A stretch of DNA of 20,632 nt from a virus, in IMG/VR virus record IMGVR_UViG_3300027987_000378, positions 1-20,632 of that record. One strand, given 5' to 3'. The translations under genes and the position numbers were made by a program. Under the pieces are notes generated by a model. It made no database searches and was not told where the DNA came from. It saw only the letters and a program-made list of their open reading frames with translations. This document shows positions 6,440 to 20,632 of this stretch, in pieces (positions within the stretch are counted from its first letter, which is position 1; every line of letters starts with the position of its first letter).

Positions 6440-6823
6440 ATGCCAACAAATGATCGCATCAGAACCCCAAAGATGTACCTGGACTCCAGGTTGTTCGTCG
6501 AGCTCACGCAGAAGGGCATGGAGGCCAACTCCAACACGACGACCGTGGCAACCGACGGCGGCCCAGTCGTCGTTCAGGGTGTTCCACAGGGCAGTTTCTC
6601 AGGGGACTTCATCGTCCCGAGTGGGAGCACCCACGTCGAGAAGCTCATTCGCAGCATGAATGCTGGCGACATCAAGCGCGTGTCGTTCGGAGTCGTCGGT
6701 ACGAAGATCCTGCAGGCAGAGTGCATCGTCGGCTCGATCAACCTGTCGAGCACCGTGGAAGACGGCAACTTCACCGGCAGCGTCTCGCTGACGATGAAGA
6801 ACGGCAAGCCCGAGCTGGTGTGA
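6440..6823 (+). CDS. Tail tube protein, Mu gpM-like
   Basis: 127 aa, the expected size for gpM-type tube proteins. The sequence is beta-rich with the family layout: a short N-terminus (KMYLDSRLFVEL), a loop with VQGVPQGSFSGDFIVPSGS, a helix HVEKLIRSMN, and closing strands VSFGVVGTKILQAECIVG and FTGSVSLTMK. The protein stacks as rings to form the conduit for DNA inside the sheath. ATG at 6440 follows GAGGAG about 11 bases upstream, a clear ribosome binding site and one of the few strong ones in the tail genes, consistent with high copy number. Its last codon provides the GTG start of the next gene in the +1 frame. Confidence 0.89.
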   Translation: MPTNDRIRTPKMYLDSRLFVELTQKGMEANSNTTTVATDGGPVVVQGVPQGSFSGDFIVPSGSTHVEKLIRSMNAGDIKRVSFGVVGTKILQAECIVGSINLSSTVEDGNFTGSVSLTMKNGKPELV

Positions 6824-7410
6824 AGCTCTCAGACATTCAGATCGTCAAGCGGCCGCTCAAGGTTGTTCCGCTGCGAGTCCCCGGTTCGACCGAGCAGTTC
6901 GAGGTGGGGTTCCGACTGGGCACGCCGACCGAGCACGCAAGCGTGTACCGACGCGCCAAAGCGGCGGCAACGGAGCGCGGCGCCGAGTCGTGGGACATCG
7001 ACGACCCGATTTGCTCGCTCGAGCTCTACGTCGAGACCGTTGCGGCGTTCGCCGTCAGTGTCGAGAACGGCAAGAGTGACTTCGACCCTTGGGCAACCGC
7101 CGATCAGATTCGTGGCTCGGTTGCGGTCGGTCAGGAAAACCTGGCCTACCTGTACAACGCCTACCAAGCATTCGAGTCCGAGCAATCGACACCCATCGGC
7201 AAGCTCGAACCGTTCGAGTTGGTGAAGTTCTGTCTCGAGGCCGCGGGAGACGACACCAGTTTTTTAGATCGATTGCGGCCAGGCACGCTGCGGACCTACG
7301 TGCGTTTTTTGGCCGCCCAGTACATCGTCTCCATCCGCGAGAAGTCGCAGAGTTCTTCGGGCTTCGACTCCAGTTCAACGCCTTCGAACACAGCTGGCGA
7401 GAACAGCTGA
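6820..7410 (+). CDS. Tail assembly chaperone (gpG-like), GTG start
   Basis: 196 aa from the GTG at 6820, which overlaps the tube stop as GTGA. The protein is mostly helical and acidic; the central part contains LELYVETVAAFAVSVENG and QENLAYLYNAYQAFE, followed by LEPFELVKFCLEAAGD. Location directly after the tube and before the tape measure is where contractile and siphophage tails keep their assembly chaperones, usually expressed as a short and a frameshifted long form. Two slippery heptamers lie near the 3' end and the last 25 residues in this frame are Ser/Thr-rich low complexity. No named family is recognised with certainty; chaperone is inferred from place, size and frameshift signals. 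It shares the KL[ST]DIQ start with the next gene. Confidence 0.62.
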   Translation: MKLSDIQIVKRPLKVVPLRVPGSTEQFEVGFRLGTPTEHASVYRRAKAAATERGAESWDIDDPICSLELYVETVAAFAVSVENGKSDFDPWATADQIRGSVAVGQENLAYLYNAYQAFESEQSTPIGKLEPFELVKFCLEAAGDDTSFLDRLRPGTLRTYVRFLAAQYIVSIREKSQSSSGFDSSSTPSNTAGENS

Positions 7411-7515: not shown

Positions 7516-8067
7516 ATGAAGCTCACCGACATCCAAGACTCACTGGCAAAGACGCCCCCCGGCACACTGTCGCTCCCTCCCGAAGTCTGGGCGACGACGT
7601 GGGACGAGCGCCCCACCGAGCCGGTCGTCGTTGGGCTGCGCCTGCTGTCTGAGTACGACCGACGGGAAGCACTGAAGCAGGCGCGGAGCAACGCGGCGAA
7701 GAGCGAGCGGCCAGAGGAATCCTTCGACGACGCGGCGGTGAGGCTACTGGTTGCTGTTGGAATCTGCGATCCAAACGACGCGACCGCGACATCCAGCCTC
7801 TTTCCCTACCCGCACGACCAGGTCTTCCTACTTCTGACAGAGTCAGGGGCCCGCTACATCTTCGACGCGATGCAGAAGCTCGAAGTGGAGATTTCCCCCC
7901 GCTTCCTCGAAGCCGACGCCGACGACATTGTAGAGTTGGTCGAGATGCTGGCGTCTGGCGGCGTCGAAGCGCTGGACGACCAAGACCGCGGAGCGGCTCT
8001 TCGCCACCTGCGCTACGTGTTCGACATTCTCGCCGAGGCCCAGACTGATGCTAGTTCAGTCGCCTGA
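7516..8067 (+). CDS. Second tail-chaperone-like protein
   Basis: 183 aa from ATG 7516 (MKLTDIQDSLAK). An in-frame GTG at 7486 would add 10 residues but has GGAG only one base away, so ATG is preferred. The protein is acidic and helical, with VVVGLRLLSEYDRREALKQA, AAVRLLVAVGICDPNDA and a distal EADADDIVELVEMLASGG. No family is recognised outright. Placement between the gpG-like gene and the tape measure suggests a second chaperone. Its KLTDIQ start and the order of a helix, a short acidic loop, a second helix and an E-x-S-P motif parallel the upstream gene, which hints at shared ancestry. The last 17 bases overlap the end of the opposite-strand gene tail to tail. Confidence 0.6.
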   Translation: MKLTDIQDSLAKTPPGTLSLPPEVWATTWDERPTEPVVVGLRLLSEYDRREALKQARSNAAKSERPEESFDDAAVRLLVAVGICDPNDATATSSLFPYPHDQVFLLLTESGARYIFDAMQKLEVEISPRFLEADADDIVELVEMLASGGVEALDDQDRGAALRHLRYVFDILAEAQTDASSVA

Positions 8068-8434
8068 CGTGGTCGGCTTCTAGGTAATCGTCGACTTCGA
8101 ACTCGGCGAACTTCTGTTCCGCGCGGGCCAGTTCTTCTTCCTCTTCTAGCTCAGGGTCTGGCAGGGCCAGGTGCCCGACGGCGTAGCCCTTGCGCAGCAG
8201 CCGCTGGCGCTCGGCCTCGTACTCGTCGCGCATCGCCTCCAGTTCGGAGCCAGGGCTACGCTGGGCCCGCATCCTGGCCCTGTCATCAGGCTCGTACAGG
8301 GCGCGCTGCACGGCGTTGGCGCGGGATGTAGCAGACTGTGCGGCCATCACCGCGTCGCGGAACTCGACGAGCCGCTGAACCGGCTCAGGTGGCAGTCCAA
8401 GAAGCGCTCGGCCGAGAAACTCTCGCAAACCCAT
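8051..8434 (-). CDS. Opposite-strand small acidic/helical protein, unknown function
   Basis: 127 aa read on the minus strand from ATG at 8434-8432 (MGLREFLGRALLGLPPEPVQ) to TAG at 8053-8051. An alternative ATG at 8452-8450 adds six residues. No family is recognised. The middle is a charged, probably coiled-coil helix (LEAMRDEYEAERQRLLRKG), and the C-terminal part is strongly acidic (ELEEEEELARAEQKFAEFEVDDY). Codons on this strand are strongly G/C-biased at position 3, while plus-strand frames across the same bases give Arg/Gln/Ser-rich sequence without a credible protein. It is the only gene on this strand. It converges on the chaperone gene and diverges from the tape measure. The ribosome binding site is weak (GGCGGG). 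Confidence 0.7.
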   Translation of the reverse strand: MGLREFLGRALLGLPPEPVQRLVEFRDAVMAAQSATSRANAVQRALYEPDDRARMRAQRSPGSELEAMRDEYEAERQRLLRKGYAVGHLALPDPELEEEEELARAEQKFAEFEVDDYLEADHVRRLN

Positions 8435-8450
8435 CCCGCCAACGTAGCAC

Positions 8451-10568
8451 ATGGCAGACCACATCAAGTTCACGATCGGCGCAGCGAAGGGTGCGTCGGT
8501 GGACCGCGTGTTCAGGGATATTCGACGCGACTCGCACCGGATCGGGTCGGAGCTCGGCAAGTACTTCAACCGCAGCGCCAAGGGCGTGAAGGGCTACCGG
8601 GACGAAGTTTCCAGGCTTTCTCGCGAGGTTCGCGCCGGTGTCAAGGCTGAAGAGGAGCTCGGTCGCGCGCGTCGCCGCCAGATGAGCGAGGCCGAGAAGG
8701 CGGCGCGTCGCGAGGCGGCTGCTCGGCAGTACGTCCACCGGCTGCGCATGCGCCAGATGCGGCAGGAGGATGCCGCGCTGCAGCGACAACAGCGGCAACA
8801 GGAACGCTCCGCCAGTCGCTTCGCGCGGATGACCTCGCATCGGGCCACGCGATTCTTCTGGCCCAACGCTCCACTAGGCTCGCTTGCCCGGCGCGCTGCC
8901 GGAGACATCGCGCGCGGCATTGGCGTCGACCTGAGCGGCGCGAGCGCCCTGCAGTCATCGGTGTCCAATCAGGCCGCGGCGACCAAGCTAAGCAACGCGG
9001 CGGTCATTGCCAACGACCCGCGAAACGCGCAACGCGTCGACCCGACCGCCATCGTCGGCGAGGCGCAAAACATCGGCGCCAAGTACAACTACGACCCCTC
9101 GCAAGTCATCGAGGGCCTGAATCAGTACACGAAGCGCACTGGCGACCTGGCCAGCGGGCGAGAGATGCTCACCGAGCTTTCCCGGATCGCCGCGGCAACC
9201 GGGTCGGAGATCGACCAGCTCTTCGGCACGGCCGGTGAGCTAGCGAATCAGCTGACGGACATTGCCCCAGACCAGCGATCGCGCTCCGTTATCCAGCTGC
9301 TCAAGTCATTCGCCGGCCAGGGCAAGCTTGGGGCCGTCGAGCTCGAGGACCTGTCTCGGTACGGCGCGCGTATCGCGGCGACGGCTGGGCTCTACGAGGG
9401 TGACCGGGCAACGAACATCACCAAGCTCGGCGCGCTGGCTCAGGCCTCCCGCGCATTCGGCGGTGCTGACACGCCAGCAATGGCCGCCACGTCGGTGGCT
9501 CGCTTGGCAACGACGTTCAAGACCAAGGCTCGTGCCCAAGCGTTCGAGAACATCACCGGCAAGTCGGTATTCGGCGAAGGCGGCAAGATCCGAGACCCCA
9601 TCGAGCTCATCAAGGAAGCCGTCGCGGCGACCAACGGTGACCCGCTCAAGTGGAACAAGATCTTCATGAACGTGATGGGCGAGCGCGCCGCCGGCGGCCT
9701 CGCCTCAAAGTACCGTGAAGCCTACTCCTCGGCGAGCGGCACCGAGGAGCAGAAGCAGGCGGCAGGCTTCGCTGGCATTGACAAGTTCATGGTCGAGATG
9801 GAATCGGCTGCACTGTCCGAGAAGCAGATCTCCGACAACATCGACAAGGTCTCGAAGACGTACGAGGCGCAGGTAAACGCGCTGAACGTGAAGTTTCAGC
9901 AGATCGCGACGCGCTTCCTCGACAAGCTGCTTCCAAAGCTAGAGCAGGCAGCGCCAGCCATCGAAGAGTTTGCAGAGAAGCTCTCCGACATCGCAATCTG
10001 GATCGTCGAGAACCCCAAGAAGGCGATCGCCGCTGGCATCGGGTTGTCGATCGCACGCGCTGGCATAGAGAGCGTCTTACGTGTTGGTCTCGAGAAAGCG
10101 ATGGGGTCGGCACTCATCGCCGAAGGCGCAGCGAAGGGACTCTCGATGGGGTTGGCAGCGGCGGGGCCAGCCGGTGTGATCGCTGCCGCAATAGCTGCAG
10201 CCATCGCTGCCCACGAACTAGGCAAAGCAGGCGCCACTTGGCTCCAAAAGAACGACCCGGCGATGAAGGGTCACAATCGCAGCTTCTCTGATTCCGAGAT
10301 CGAAAAGGACTGGGAGGACGCGAAGCTGCTGTTCAGCCGCGACAAGAACTTCTGGCAGAACCTGTCAGCGCACAACGTAAGCGAAGCGGGGCGCCCGGAA
10401 GGGTTCACCGTCAACGCAAAGAGCACTGGGATACAGCGCGGCAATGGGTCCGAGGCGCAGATGCATCGCCTCGAAGCAGCAATGCAGCGAGTCGACCGGC
10501 GCCTGTCCGGGACACTCAGTGTGCGGGTTGAGCAAACGGGCAAAGTCACTCAGCACGGCGACAACTGA
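8451..10568 (+). CDS. Tail tape measure protein
   Basis: 705 aa, the longest complete gene here and in the usual place between chaperones and gpN. The N-terminal 130 residues are basic and Arg/Gln/Glu-rich, likely coiled coil (VSRLSREVRAGVKAEEELGR). The middle is helical and contains tape-measure-like segments such as EMLTELSRIAAATGSEIDQL and a VSKTYEAQVNALNVKFQQIA helix near residue 465. Residues about 520-590 are hydrophobic and Ala/Gly-rich (AAAGPAGVIAAAIAAAIAAH), typical of the membrane-active part. A hydrophilic C-terminus follows. The protein sets tail length and is ejected at infection. ATG at 8451 has no visible Shine-Dalgarno sequence, and a stop two codons upstream excludes an earlier start. 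Confidence 0.93.
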   Translation: MADHIKFTIGAAKGASVDRVFRDIRRDSHRIGSELGKYFNRSAKGVKGYRDEVSRLSREVRAGVKAEEELGRARRRQMSEAEKAARREAAARQYVHRLRMRQMRQEDAALQRQQRQQERSASRFARMTSHRATRFFWPNAPLGSLARRAAGDIARGIGVDLSGASALQSSVSNQAAATKLSNAAVIANDPRNAQRVDPTAIVGEAQNIGAKYNYDPSQVIEGLNQYTKRTGDLASGREMLTELSRIAAATGSEIDQLFGTAGELANQLTDIAPDQRSRSVIQLLKSFAGQGKLGAVELEDLSRYGARIAATAGLYEGDRATNITKLGALAQASRAFGGADTPAMAATSVARLATTFKTKARAQAFENITGKSVFGEGGKIRDPIELIKEAVAATNGDPLKWNKIFMNVMGERAAGGLASKYREAYSSASGTEEQKQAAGFAGIDKFMVEMESAALSEKQISDNIDKVSKTYEAQVNALNVKFQQIATRFLDKLLPKLEQAAPAIEEFAEKLSDIAIWIVENPKKAIAAGIGLSIARAGIESVLRVGLEKAMGSALIAEGAAKGLSMGLAAAGPAGVIAAAIAAAIAAHELGKAGATWLQKNDPAMKGHNRSFSDSEIEKDWEDAKLLFSRDKNFWQNLSAHNVSEAGRPEGFTVNAKSTGIQRGNGSEAQMHRLEAAMQRVDRRLSGTLSVRVEQTGKVTQHGDN

Positions 10569-17517: not shown

Positions 17518-18665
17518 GTTTTGGGCTGGTGCGACAGACGTGGAACTCGCTCACCGCGTTGTTCGCCAGCGAGATGGCGCAGCTCGACCAGAACGTATCG
17601 AACGCACTCGACGGTGCCGGAGGCGGCTCGTACGCACCGTCCGCCAAGCTGCTCATCGGCGGCGGCGGCATCATGGATGCCAACTCGGCAACCCACGACG
17701 TCGCGAGCTCTACCGCAAACGTGACGATCAGCGGAGTCACGGCGCATCGACTACGCGTAACCAACGCGTTCAACGTTACAGAGAAGCTCGAGGTTCAGTT
17801 TGACGCCGGCGCGGATGGTGAAAAGCGGGAGCTGCAACTCGACTTCCTTTCAGCTGGCACACAGCTGCTGGTCAAAGGCGATGGCGGAGCAACGATCGCA
17901 AGCGGGCTGTTCTGGGCCAATAGGACCCTCCGATACGTCAGCGTGACGCTGGAGCGAGACGGGGGTGCTTGGCACATCGCGACGCGCAGCGCTTCCCCTG
18001 ACGCGCCGTTTCTAACGACGTCGCTGACACCAGTTCAGACCCCATCCGTCAACACGCAGATGGTGACGAGCGAGTACGTGTATGCCAACACGGCATCCGG
18101 ATCGATCTCCATGCGGCTACCGGATGCGGCCGACATTGGAAACGGCGTGTTCCGCACGATCCGATTCGAGCGAATCGATGGAGGAACGCAGCTCGGGTTC
18201 CACAATCCGGCAGGAAGCCTGCAGTACCTGCACCTCGCCAACGGCGCTGGCGAGGTCAACACAACGTTCACCTTCGTGTCGAGGAACTCGGGTTGGACAC
18301 TGTGGGGTCTGCGACGTAACGAGCGAGATCTGGTAGCAGGCATCGCTTACACCAACCCATCGAGCGCCGAAATCAATACCGATGCTATCGATGCCGTGTA
18401 CTTCGACCTGGACGTCAGCCCGTTCGGCTACAACGAAGACACGACAGTGTCGCTCTACCCGCCACTTTTCGAGGGGCAAGAGCTGGCGATTCTCTGGCGA
18501 CTGTTTCGTGACGATGCGACCGCCACGAACGTGCACTTCATCACGACTGCGAACGCAAACCCGTTCTTCACCTACCGCCCCAAGAACACGCTCGCAAGCG
18601 GGCCTATGACATGGCGCCTGCGCGTCGTGAATGGCCAGTGGCGCTGGGCAGGGGCTAGCTACTGA
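17514..18665 (+). CDS. Tail fibre / receptor-binding protein, three similar modules
   Basis: 383 aa, starting in an ATGA overlap. A short helical N-terminus (VRQTWNSLTALFASEMAQLDQ) probably attaches to the baseplate. The rest reads as three beta-rich modules of about 100-115 residues (roughly 55-165, 166-275, 276-383). Each ends in a similar pattern: strand, then N/D-G/S-G-x-W-x-Φ (DGGAWHIATRS, RNSGWTLWGLRR, VNGQWRWAGASY). No catalytic motif or collagen repeat is visible. The position after the gp48-like gene and directly before a collagen-type fibre makes it a fibre or adaptor protein. A receptor-binding role is inferred. Confidence 0.7.
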   Translation: MSFGLVRQTWNSLTALFASEMAQLDQNVSNALDGAGGGSYAPSAKLLIGGGGIMDANSATHDVASSTANVTISGVTAHRLRVTNAFNVTEKLEVQFDAGADGEKRELQLDFLSAGTQLLVKGDGGATIASGLFWANRTLRYVSVTLERDGGAWHIATRSASPDAPFLTTSLTPVQTPSVNTQMVTSEYVYANTASGSISMRLPDAADIGNGVFRTIRFERIDGGTQLGFHNPAGSLQYLHLANGAGEVNTTFTFVSRNSGWTLWGLRRNERDLVAGIAYTNPSSAEINTDAIDAVYFDLDVSPFGYNEDTTVSLYPPLFEGQELAILWRLFRDDATATNVHFITTANANPFFTYRPKNTLASGPMTWRLRVVNGQWRWAGASY

Positions 18666-20632
18666 TGCCTTCAAACATCAAGCTCACAATCTCGGTCAAT
18701 GGCGGAGCCCCGCTGCAGGGGCCCATCAGCGGCGGCGTCGCCGTCACCGGTGGTGACTCCGTACAACTCGGTCACGCCAACACGAGCGGAGCGAAGCAGT
18801 ACCGCTTCGAGATCCTCGAATACCCGCCCGGGTTCACGCTTCCCAGCGGCTGGTCGATCGATGGTGAGGACAATCGGACCTACTACTACCCGGGCCCAAA
18901 CCCGCCAGCGTTCAGCATTCCCGGCTCGTCGGCGATTTGGGGAAATTGGATCTTCCGCCTAGTCATCGACAACGGCAAGCGCCCGAGCTCGACATCACCC
19001 GGAGAGATGGAGGCAGCCAGCGACCTGGTTGACGCATCTCTCGGCGCGCAGAAGCCCGGTACACTGCTGAAAGACACTGGATTCTTAGAGACGAACCAGT
19101 TCAGTCAGGAGCGATACGCCGTCGAGGCGATGAAGTTCAACTGGCGGGCACTTGATGACTTGGTGTTGTCAGCTGGCGGCCAGTCCAACACGGCGAGCAA
19201 CCTCGGAACTGGGGTCGGTGTCTTCGAGCAGAAGGTGCTGGCGGACTTGCAGTTCCGCTCGATCCTTGCCGGCGCCGGCATCAGCGTCCAGCTCGTCGAC
19301 GGCGGTTCCGGACTGCACGACATTCGGATCACCAACACTGGCGCAAACGGTGGTGGAGGCGGGATACCCTACACCTTCAACCCGAGCACTGGCGCGGCCG
19401 ACCCCGGCGATGGCCACCTGTCGTTCAATGCCGCAAAAACGATCCTCTACATCAACGACGAGGACTCCAATGGCGCGCCTGTAGCCGCTTGGCTGGAGAC
19501 CTGGGACGACTCCACTAGCACGGTCAAGGGCTACGCGATCATCTCTGCGGGATCGACAGCGCTGGCTGTTGCTGCGGTGACTTCGTTCTCTGGTTCCGGG
19601 TACTACACGGTGGGGATCATCTCACTCGTTGCATTCGGAACGTTCCCGACCGACGACGGGGCGCTGCGTGTGCTGTTCGTCCCGAAGGGCGACAAGGGCG
19701 ACACCGGAGCCGCTGGTGCAGCTGGAACGAACGGGACGAATGGCACCAATGGCTCTGACGGAGCGCCTGGAGCCACCGGAGCAGTGGGACCCAATGGCTA
19801 CCCTGGCGGTGAGTCCGCACTCGTCACGTTCAAAACAGCGATCGACGCGACCGATCCTGGCAGCGGCTTCGCAAAGCTCAATGCCTCTACGGTCGGCGGA
19901 AGCACATCGCTCTACGTCAACGCGAACACAGTCGACAATCGCGACCTTTCCGAAGTGTGGCCAACGCTGCAAGTCGGCGATCGCGTGCGCGCATTCGAGG
20001 TCGACGCTGTCGAAAACTGGGTAACGTGGAAGGTCGAAAGCGTCGTCGATCTAACAACGTGGTTCGAGATCAAGTTCTCTGAGATCGCGGACCGCAAGTC
20101 CGGATCGTGGACGTTCGGGACCACCACGGCGAACCTCGTACTGATGGTCCTGCGCGGCGGAGCGTCGTCGACGGCGGTTTCTCCAGGGGTGTCGAGCGTC
20201 GCCGGCAAGCTCGCTCTATTCAACGCGTGGTCAGCCTTCCAGCAGCCGGGCGGCAACGTACCGATGTTCACGCATCGGCACGCCGTGTGGTTGCCTGAGT
20301 TCGAGTACTGGCTCGTGCTTGCGTTCACTGGCTACTTGACGTCTCCAGATGCAGGCATCTCCGCAGGCTATATCAATGCTATGGCATTTGCCAACCGAGA
20401 GGGCGGCCTCACTGGTGCGATCACTCACTCCGATGAGAACTACGCACCCGGTGGATTGAGAGTCATCGGCGGAATGGGCGGGCCAGAACTGCAGTCACCG
20501 TTCTGCGTCGAGACTGCACCAATCGTCTCCGGTCAGACCAAGAGCACAATGGTGCTGGTTGGCGCATCTCGGAAAACAGGCGAGGACAGCGCCACCAACA
20601 AGCTGTTCAAGTCGATCAATGGCGGCGCCACG
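18665..20632 (+). CDS. Large tail fibre/adhesin with Ig-like, collagen-like and Asp-box parts (3' truncated)
   Basis: At least 656 codons, open from ATG 18665 (TGATG overlap) to the last base; the stop lies beyond the window. Order: residues 1-120 an Ig-like domain (SGGVAVTGGDSVQLGHANTS, EYPPGFTLPSGW, WGNWIFRLVIDNG); a linker to about 235; about 238-341 a pre-collagen beta domain (HLSFNAAKTILYINDEDSNG, VKGYAIISAGS); 342-381 a collagen-like stretch of thirteen G-x-x triplets; about 385-500 a second pre-collagen-like domain; then a beta-rich C-terminal part with VWLPEFEYWLVLAF. The visible end S-I-N-G-G-A-T resembles an Asp-box (S-x-N/D-x-G-x-T), suggesting a beta-propeller. Inferred role: host recognition, possibly with glycan binding or cleavage. 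Confidence 0.86.
   Translation, partial: MPSNIKLTISVNGGAPLQGPISGGVAVTGGDSVQLGHANTSGAKQYRFEILEYPPGFTLPSGWSIDGEDNRTYYYPGPNPPAFSIPGSSAIWGNWIFRLVIDNGKRPSSTSPGEMEAASDLVDASLGAQKPGTLLKDTGFLETNQFSQERYAVEAMKFNWRALDDLVLSAGGQSNTASNLGTGVGVFEQKVLADLQFRSILAGAGISVQLVDGGSGLHDIRITNTGANGGGGGIPYTFNPSTGAADPGDGHLSFNAAKTILYINDEDSNGAPVAAWLETWDDSTSTVKGYAIISAGSTALAVAAVTSFSGSGYYTVGIISLVAFGTFPTDDGALRVLFVPKGDKGDTGAAGAAGTNGTNGTNGSDGAPGATGAVGPNGYPGGESALVTFKTAIDATDPGSGFAKLNASTVGGSTSLYVNANTVDNRDLSEVWPTLQVGDRVRAFEVDAVENWVTWKVESVVDLTTWFEIKFSEIADRKSGSWTFGTTTANLVLMVLRGGASSTAVSPGVSSVAGKLALFNAWSAFQQPGGNVPMFTHRHAVWLPEFEYWLVLAFTGYLTSPDAGISAGYINAMAFANREGGLTGAITHSDENYAPGGLRVIGGMGGPELQSPFCVETAPIVSGQTKSTMVLVGASRKTGEDSATNKLFKSINGGAT
19688..19807 (+). 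repeat. Collagen-like Gly-x-x repeat within the fibre gene
   Basis: Thirteen consecutive Gly-x-x triplets plus a closing Gly: GDK GDT GAA GAA, GTN three times, GSD, GAP, GAT, GAV, GPN, GYP. The stretch codes residues 342-381. The triple G-T-N run makes the DNA locally repetitive (GGxACxAAx). Such stretches form triple-helical stalks in phage fibres and are length-variable hot spots. Confidence 0.9.

What the first reader, a model, noticed from the sequence alone, without database searches (positions are those of the whole stretch)
8051..8434. A single opposite-strand gene inside the tail operon, between chaperones and tape measure
Every other gene in 20.6 kb is on the plus strand. This 127-aa frame has coding-like codon bias and a plausible protein (coiled coil, acidic C-terminus), while the plus strand leaves 383 bases without a credible gene. 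The late transcript must run through it as antisense, and its own transcription would meet the late operon head-on. Its end overlaps the chaperone end by 17 bases. The tape-measure start and an alternative minus-strand ATG share one CATG at 8450-8453. It could be a lysogenically expressed moron (for example superinfection exclusion or anti-phage), or a regulator of tape-measure output. The function is unknown.
Basis: partly seen in the sequence, partly recalled or inferred. Interest (0 to 1): 0.62.

Follow-up and report, generated by a model that had tools for sequence, protein, structure and literature searches.

The report
Reverse-strand moron inside phage tail operon
A small protein gene lies backwards inside the tail-gene operon of a contractile-tailed (Mu-like structural module) phage; relatives in other uncultured phages keep it in the same slot and orientation under purifying selection, so it is a real extra ('moron') gene, most likely expressed in the dormant prophage and silenced when tails are made.

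Summary
Window 8051-8434 (minus) is a genuine protein gene, not a shadow frame. Homologues lie in the same slot, antisense, between tail-assembly chaperone 2 and the tape measure, in two further phage lineages: IMG/VR 3300043410_002484, and 3300037474_000174 / 3300045391_004365 (99.96% identical over 22.8 kb). All share the tail-to-tail overlap with the chaperone stop and the ending ..LN*. Between the two relatives dN/dS is 0.20, differences by codon position are 26/16/48, and only this frame lacks internal stops. The window protein is the top hit of 1338 ORFs for their HMM (E 1e-4). In more distant relatives (G585, G397) chaperone and tape measure (nearly) abut, so the gene is an insertion (moron). 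In both relative lineages, but not the window, a sense-strand antirepressor-like gene (P22_AR_N; or P63C/pRha) follows, head-to-head with the antisense gene across ~200 bp that are 78% identical, recalling P22 immI. The 90-kb relative carries an integrase and repressor-like HTH genes, so it looks temperate. The protein matches nothing in Pfam, PHROGs, NCBIfam, PADLOC or PDB. Best reading: a lysogeny-expressed reverse moron in a 'noncontiguous operon', probably superinfection interference (compare phi80 Tai, HK97 gp15). A Mnt-like regulator is the main rival. Mechanism is inferred.

The parts
8051..8434 (-). Antisense moron gene, 127 aa, all-helical prediction (low confidence), acidic C-terminus, pI 4.9
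8051..8067 (.). Tail-to-tail overlap of the antisense stop with the stop of tail-assembly chaperone 2; a shorter overlap of the same kind is present in L002 and L034
   Evidence: and sequence
6820..7410 (+). Upstream tail gene, probably tail-assembly chaperone 1 by position
   Evidence: orthologues in L002, L005, L034
7516..8067 (+). Tail-assembly chaperone 2 (named by position before the tape measure)
   Evidence: orthologues 40-45% identical in L002, L005, L034; profile match in L026
8451..10568 (+). Tape-measure protein
   Evidence: 52% to L002, 45-47% to L034/L033, 27% to L026, 26-29% to annotated tape measures of GenBank phages
8435..8450 (.). 16-base gap between the two start codons, all that separates the antisense start from the tape-measure start; the relatives have about 200 bp plus an antirepressor-like gene here
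8450..8453 (.). CATG shared by the tape-measure ATG and an alternative in-frame minus ATG at 8452; homologues support the 8434 start instead

Best explanation
A true protein-coding reverse moron inserted antisense at the chaperone/tape-measure junction of a probably temperate contractile-tailed phage, forming a noncontiguous operon. Shown: it is a gene, conserved in place and orientation, and absent from more distant tail modules. Inferred: it has its own promoter and is made in the lysogen, when the late operon is off; on induction, late transcription runs through it as antisense and shuts it down. Inferred and less certain: its product is a small helical protein that protects the lysogen by interfering with an infecting phage's tail, tape-measure or injection step, and it must be off in the lytic cycle because it might act on its own tail module.
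For: Homologous antisense genes in the identical slot in two other lineages. Purifying selection in that frame. HMM rank 1 of 1338 ORFs; 20.1 bits against 7.7 for the best of 2000 shuffles. Best minus-strand codon score in the window. Two distant relatives lack the gene: chaperone and tape measure abut in G585 and are about 18 bases apart in G397. The G594 relative has an integrase and repressor-like HTH genes, and the antisense gene is the only well-scoring minus gene inside its tail operon. Precedents: HK97 gp15 moron in the same slot and gp23 annotated 'reverse moron'; phi80 taiEcA, an anti-tail defence gene antisense inside the late operon, expressed in the lysogen and reduced when Q is expressed (PMC11364771); antisense noncontiguous operons in prophage 80alpha (PMC11087260).
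Against: No expression data. No sigma-70-like promoter found near the start, though that scan may not suit this host. No match to any known exclusion or defence protein. No membrane segment (highest 19-residue hydropathy 0.41-0.92), unlike HK97 gp15. In two lineages it is paired head-to-head with an antirepressor-like gene, which fits a regulator at least as well as a defence protein.
Confidence: 0.5

Rival explanations
1. P22 immI-like lysogeny regulator: the antisense protein is a Mnt-like partner that holds down the divergently transcribed antirepressor gene through the conserved ~200 bp region between them. The window lineage has lost (or never had) the antirepressor.
For: In L002 and L034 the antisense gene is head-to-head with a sense antirepressor-like gene of different families. 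The shared intergenic region is 77.7% identical over 202 bp although the downstream proteins differ. P22 has mnt/sieA on minus and arc-ant on plus between late genes 16 and 9.
Against: The window keeps the antisense gene with neither the antirepressor nor the intergenic region. No DNA-binding domain is detected. The prediction is all-helical, so not the ribbon-helix-helix fold of Arc/Mnt, but the models are low confidence. The window protein is acidic (pI 4.9).
Confidence: 0.2
2. Other lysogenic-conversion moron (host physiology, not exclusion or lysogeny control), with the same antisense genetic design.
For: Same anatomy; phage morons have diverse roles; no family match narrows it down.
Against: A fixed position next to the tape measure in three lineages hints at a tie to the tail or lysogeny module, but positional conservation may just be descent.
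Confidence: 0.2
3. Virion- or tail-assembly-related function, or tuning of tape-measure output by antisense transcription.
For: Adjacent to the chaperone and tape measure; in the window a promoter for it would have to lie within the tape-measure gene, so its transcript could overlap that gene's start.
Against: More distant tail modules lack the gene, so it is dispensable for tails there. In the relatives its start lies about 1 kb from the tape-measure start. The opposite strand disfavours co-expression with the late genes.
Confidence: 0.08
4. Chance open frame on the non-coding strand of an untranslated spacer.
For: At 63% GC such frames occur: 4.7% of shuffles are as open.
Against: Conservation of the frame, dN/dS 0.20, codon-position pattern 26/16/48, HMM match and shared ends in three lineages.
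Confidence: 0.02

Closest known systems
HK97 gp15 (superinfection-exclusion moron) and HK97 gp23 ('reverse moron')
   Same: gp15 sits in the same chaperone/tape-measure slot; gp23 is a small antisense gene in the same tail operon
   Different: gp15 is on the sense strand and is an inner-membrane protein (from the titles of Cumby et al. cited in PMC10884400 and general knowledge); the present gene is antisense with no membrane segment; no direct sequence comparison was made
phi80 TaiEcA and related Tai systems (PMC11364771)
   Same: Small prophage defence gene antisense inside the late operon, lysogen-expressed, reduced by late transcription; acts on tail assembly
   Different: Tai homologues mostly lie upstream of the packaging module; the present gene is at the tape measure, and no sequence or functional link was shown
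P22 immI region (sieA, mnt / arc, ant)
   Same: In the relatives: minus-strand gene and plus-strand antirepressor-like gene, head-to-head, inserted between two late genes
   Different: The window has no antirepressor; no Arc/Mnt-type repressor recognised; different slot
Tab of P. aeruginosa prophage JBD26 (PMC10884400)
   Same: Small prophage moron in a late operon; its inhibition maps to the tape measure of a Mu-like phage
   Different: Encoded between the terminase genes; homology to the present gene not tested

Membership tests
Reverse moron / noncontiguous operon (antisense gene nested in an operon) | Protein-coding gene on the opposite strand, nested between genes of one operon | tested here: met
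   (that the flanking genes form one operon is inferred from their spacing and order)
Reverse moron / noncontiguous operon (antisense gene nested in an operon) | Added relative to other phages (absent from homologous modules) | tested here: met
   G585 and G397 have chaperone and tape measure adjacent
Reverse moron / noncontiguous operon (antisense gene nested in an operon) | Own promoter and reciprocal expression with the operon | tested here: inconclusive
   No sigma-70-like site found; RNA data needed
Tai tail-assembly-inhibition proteins | Sequence similarity to Tai or other listed defence families | tested here: inconclusive
   No PADLOC 2023, Pfam or PHROG match, but Tai (2024) postdates that PADLOC copy
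Tai tail-assembly-inhibition proteins | Blocks tail assembly of an infecting phage | not testable with these tools
   needs a plating experiment
HK97 gp15-type exclusion proteins | Inner-membrane anchoring segment | tested here: not met
   highest 19-residue mean hydropathy 0.41 (window), 0.91-0.92 (relatives)
P22 immI-type module | Antirepressor gene divergent from the minus-strand gene, between late genes | tested here: not met
   Absent from the window (16-base gap); present in the relatives L002 and L034
Arc/Mnt repressors | Ribbon-helix-helix domain | tested here: not met
   No Pfam or NCBIfam match; models all-helical but low confidence

The most novel reading that the evidence does not exclude
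An unrecognised immI-like cassette sits at the chaperone/tape-measure junction of a group of uncultured temperate phages: a new family of antisense lysogeny or exclusion protein, a conserved, possibly structured ~200 bp control region, and an exchangeable antirepressor. The cassette couples prophage protection and lysogeny control to tail-gene transcription, and the window carries a stripped form with the antisense gene alone.
Probability: 0.3. Interest if true: 0.65.

Novelty: new member of a known kind. Interest (0 to 1): 0.42.

Why it matters
Antisense genes nested in prophage operons are now known to include defence genes whose silencing is built into the lytic switch. This adds a new, conserved protein family in a slot next to the tape measure, in phages of an uncultured host group. 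It shows that one small gene can persist antisense across diverged phages, with and without an exchangeable antirepressor partner, so exclusion versus regulation can be tested directly.

Tried and rejected
(1) Plus-strand gene in the spacer: rejected; every plus frame of the spacer has stops, and the plus frame that stays open across 8171-8650 gives only short or scattered matches to the relatives. Six-frame tblastn with composition correction off gave comparable scores in several frames, so it was not used as evidence for the frame. (2) Family searches (Pfam, PHROGs, NCBIfam, PADLOC, PDB profile) found nothing. (3) Two AlphaFold runs gave low confidence (pLDDT 64 and 61, pTM 0.26 and 0.31), so no fold search was made. 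(4) Weak profile hits in other genomes: of four inspected, two are segments of large cellular proteins, one is broken by a stop and one lies in a long frame of no evident relation; rejected as chance. (5) GenBank phages and plasmids: no homologue. (6) The relatives' control region is not an Rfam family. Its late-strand fold is shared, but with only 2 compensatory, 5 one-sided and 4 broken pairs, so an RNA role stays a suggestion; it was not found elsewhere beyond one short partial hit. (7) A first gene call on G592 used a join with a one-base error and was redone.

Full report
Observation. The window is a complete 20,632-base contig (C309) of a 10.4-Mb bacterial genome assembly. It carries a contractile-tail structural module: Mu-like gpI and gpT, tail sheath, tail tube by position, two chaperone-like genes by position, tape measure and baseplate genes. 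It is the only minus-strand ORF with a clearly gene-like codon score: 30.4 against 11.2 for the next.

Is it a gene? Being open is not enough: 4.7% of shuffles are as open. Relatives settle it. A scan of IMG/VR with the tape measure found a phage (L002, 52% identical tape measure) with a minus-strand ORF of 109 aa in the same slot. A scan with that protein found two more records with a 72% identical protein, again antisense between chaperone 2 and tape measure. These two records are 99.96% identical over 22.8 kb, so there are three lineages in all. Between L002 and L034 the gene shows 78 of 109 identical residues, differences of 26/16/48 at codon positions 1/2/3, dN/dS 0.20, and no internal stops in this frame only. 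An HMM of these two ranks the window ORF first of 1338 ORFs (E 1.1e-4; next 0.8); against 2000 shuffles of the protein it scores 20.1 bits, best shuffle 7.7. Conserved features include R-L-L-x-x-G-Y-x-V, a following L-P, and the final L-N. The homologues start at the residue matching 8434, so the alternative ATG at 8452 is unlikely to be the start.

Is it an insertion? In a more distant phage (G585, tape measure 27% identical; chaperone match by profile) chaperone 2 and tape measure abut with no gap. In G397 about 18 bases separate them. The gene is therefore best read as an addition in this group: a moron.

Neighbourhood in the relatives. Both relative lineages have a sense-strand gene between the antisense gene and the tape measure. 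In L034 it is an antirepressor with a P22_AR_N domain (E 8e-33); in L002 it is a different protein with a P63C match and weak pRha similarity. The region between the two divergent genes is 77.7% identical over 202 bp, although the downstream proteins are of different families. On the late strand it folds in much the same way in both, with the 5' end of the structure pairing to the purine-rich stretch before the antirepressor start, but the covariation is modest. The window has none of this: 16 bases separate the antisense start from the tape-measure start. The 90-kb relative has an integrase and repressor-like HTH genes, so it looks temperate.

Mechanism. Shown: a conserved coding gene, antisense, fixed slot, absent from more distant modules. 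Inferred: expression in the lysogen from its own promoter, and silencing by read-through of the late transcript. This design is documented for phi80 taiEcA, which is made in the lysogen and falls when Q is expressed (PMC11364771), and a related antisense design for prophage 80alpha (PMC11087260). HK97 carries gp15 in the same slot and a 'reverse moron' gp23. P22 immI gives the layout of the relatives. I put about 0.9 on 'real antisense moron', 0.5 on the full exclusion reading, and 0.2 on a Mnt-like regulator.

Limits. Three lineages, all from metagenomes or a draft assembly; no expression data; no fold; no family. The host group was not named by the tools. Contig C226 of the same assembly (a related tail module) ends just after its chaperone, with an open acidic minus frame of 42 codons running off the end, which may be another antisense gene at this slot.

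Noticed in passing
L002:4036-4243 and L034:4793-5003: About 200 bp between the antisense gene and the antirepressor-like gene is 78% identical in two phages whose downstream proteins belong to different families; a shared late-strand fold may cover the antirepressor ribosome-binding site. No Rfam match.
   Followed up: partly
L034:9753-10094 (-), L033:7621-7962 (-): A tmRNA gene (tag ANDNATALPVAA) on the late strand inside the head-to-tail gene region of the phage.
   Followed up: no
L047:17078-18535 and 18535-18771 (-) (G594 about 77-78.8 kb): Phage-encoded nicotinate/nicotinamide phosphoribosyltransferase-family protein next to a phosphoribosyl-pyrophosphate-synthetase-like piece, suggestive of NAD replenishment.
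   Followed up: partly
L006:7600-7728 (G000:C226): Minus frame open for 42 codons from the contig end into the chaperone end, acidic, no similarity seen to the window protein: possible further antisense gene at the same slot.
   Followed up: partly
G000 contigs C226, C102, C475: Three more fragments with related tail genes in the same assembly, so it holds several related phages or prophages.
   Followed up: partly
G592:34176-34556 (-) and G594:49763-50254 (-): Low-scoring minus ORFs in both relatives that share an FNWAPP motif, downstream of the tail fibre genes; possibly a second antisense gene or a shadow frame.
   Followed up: no
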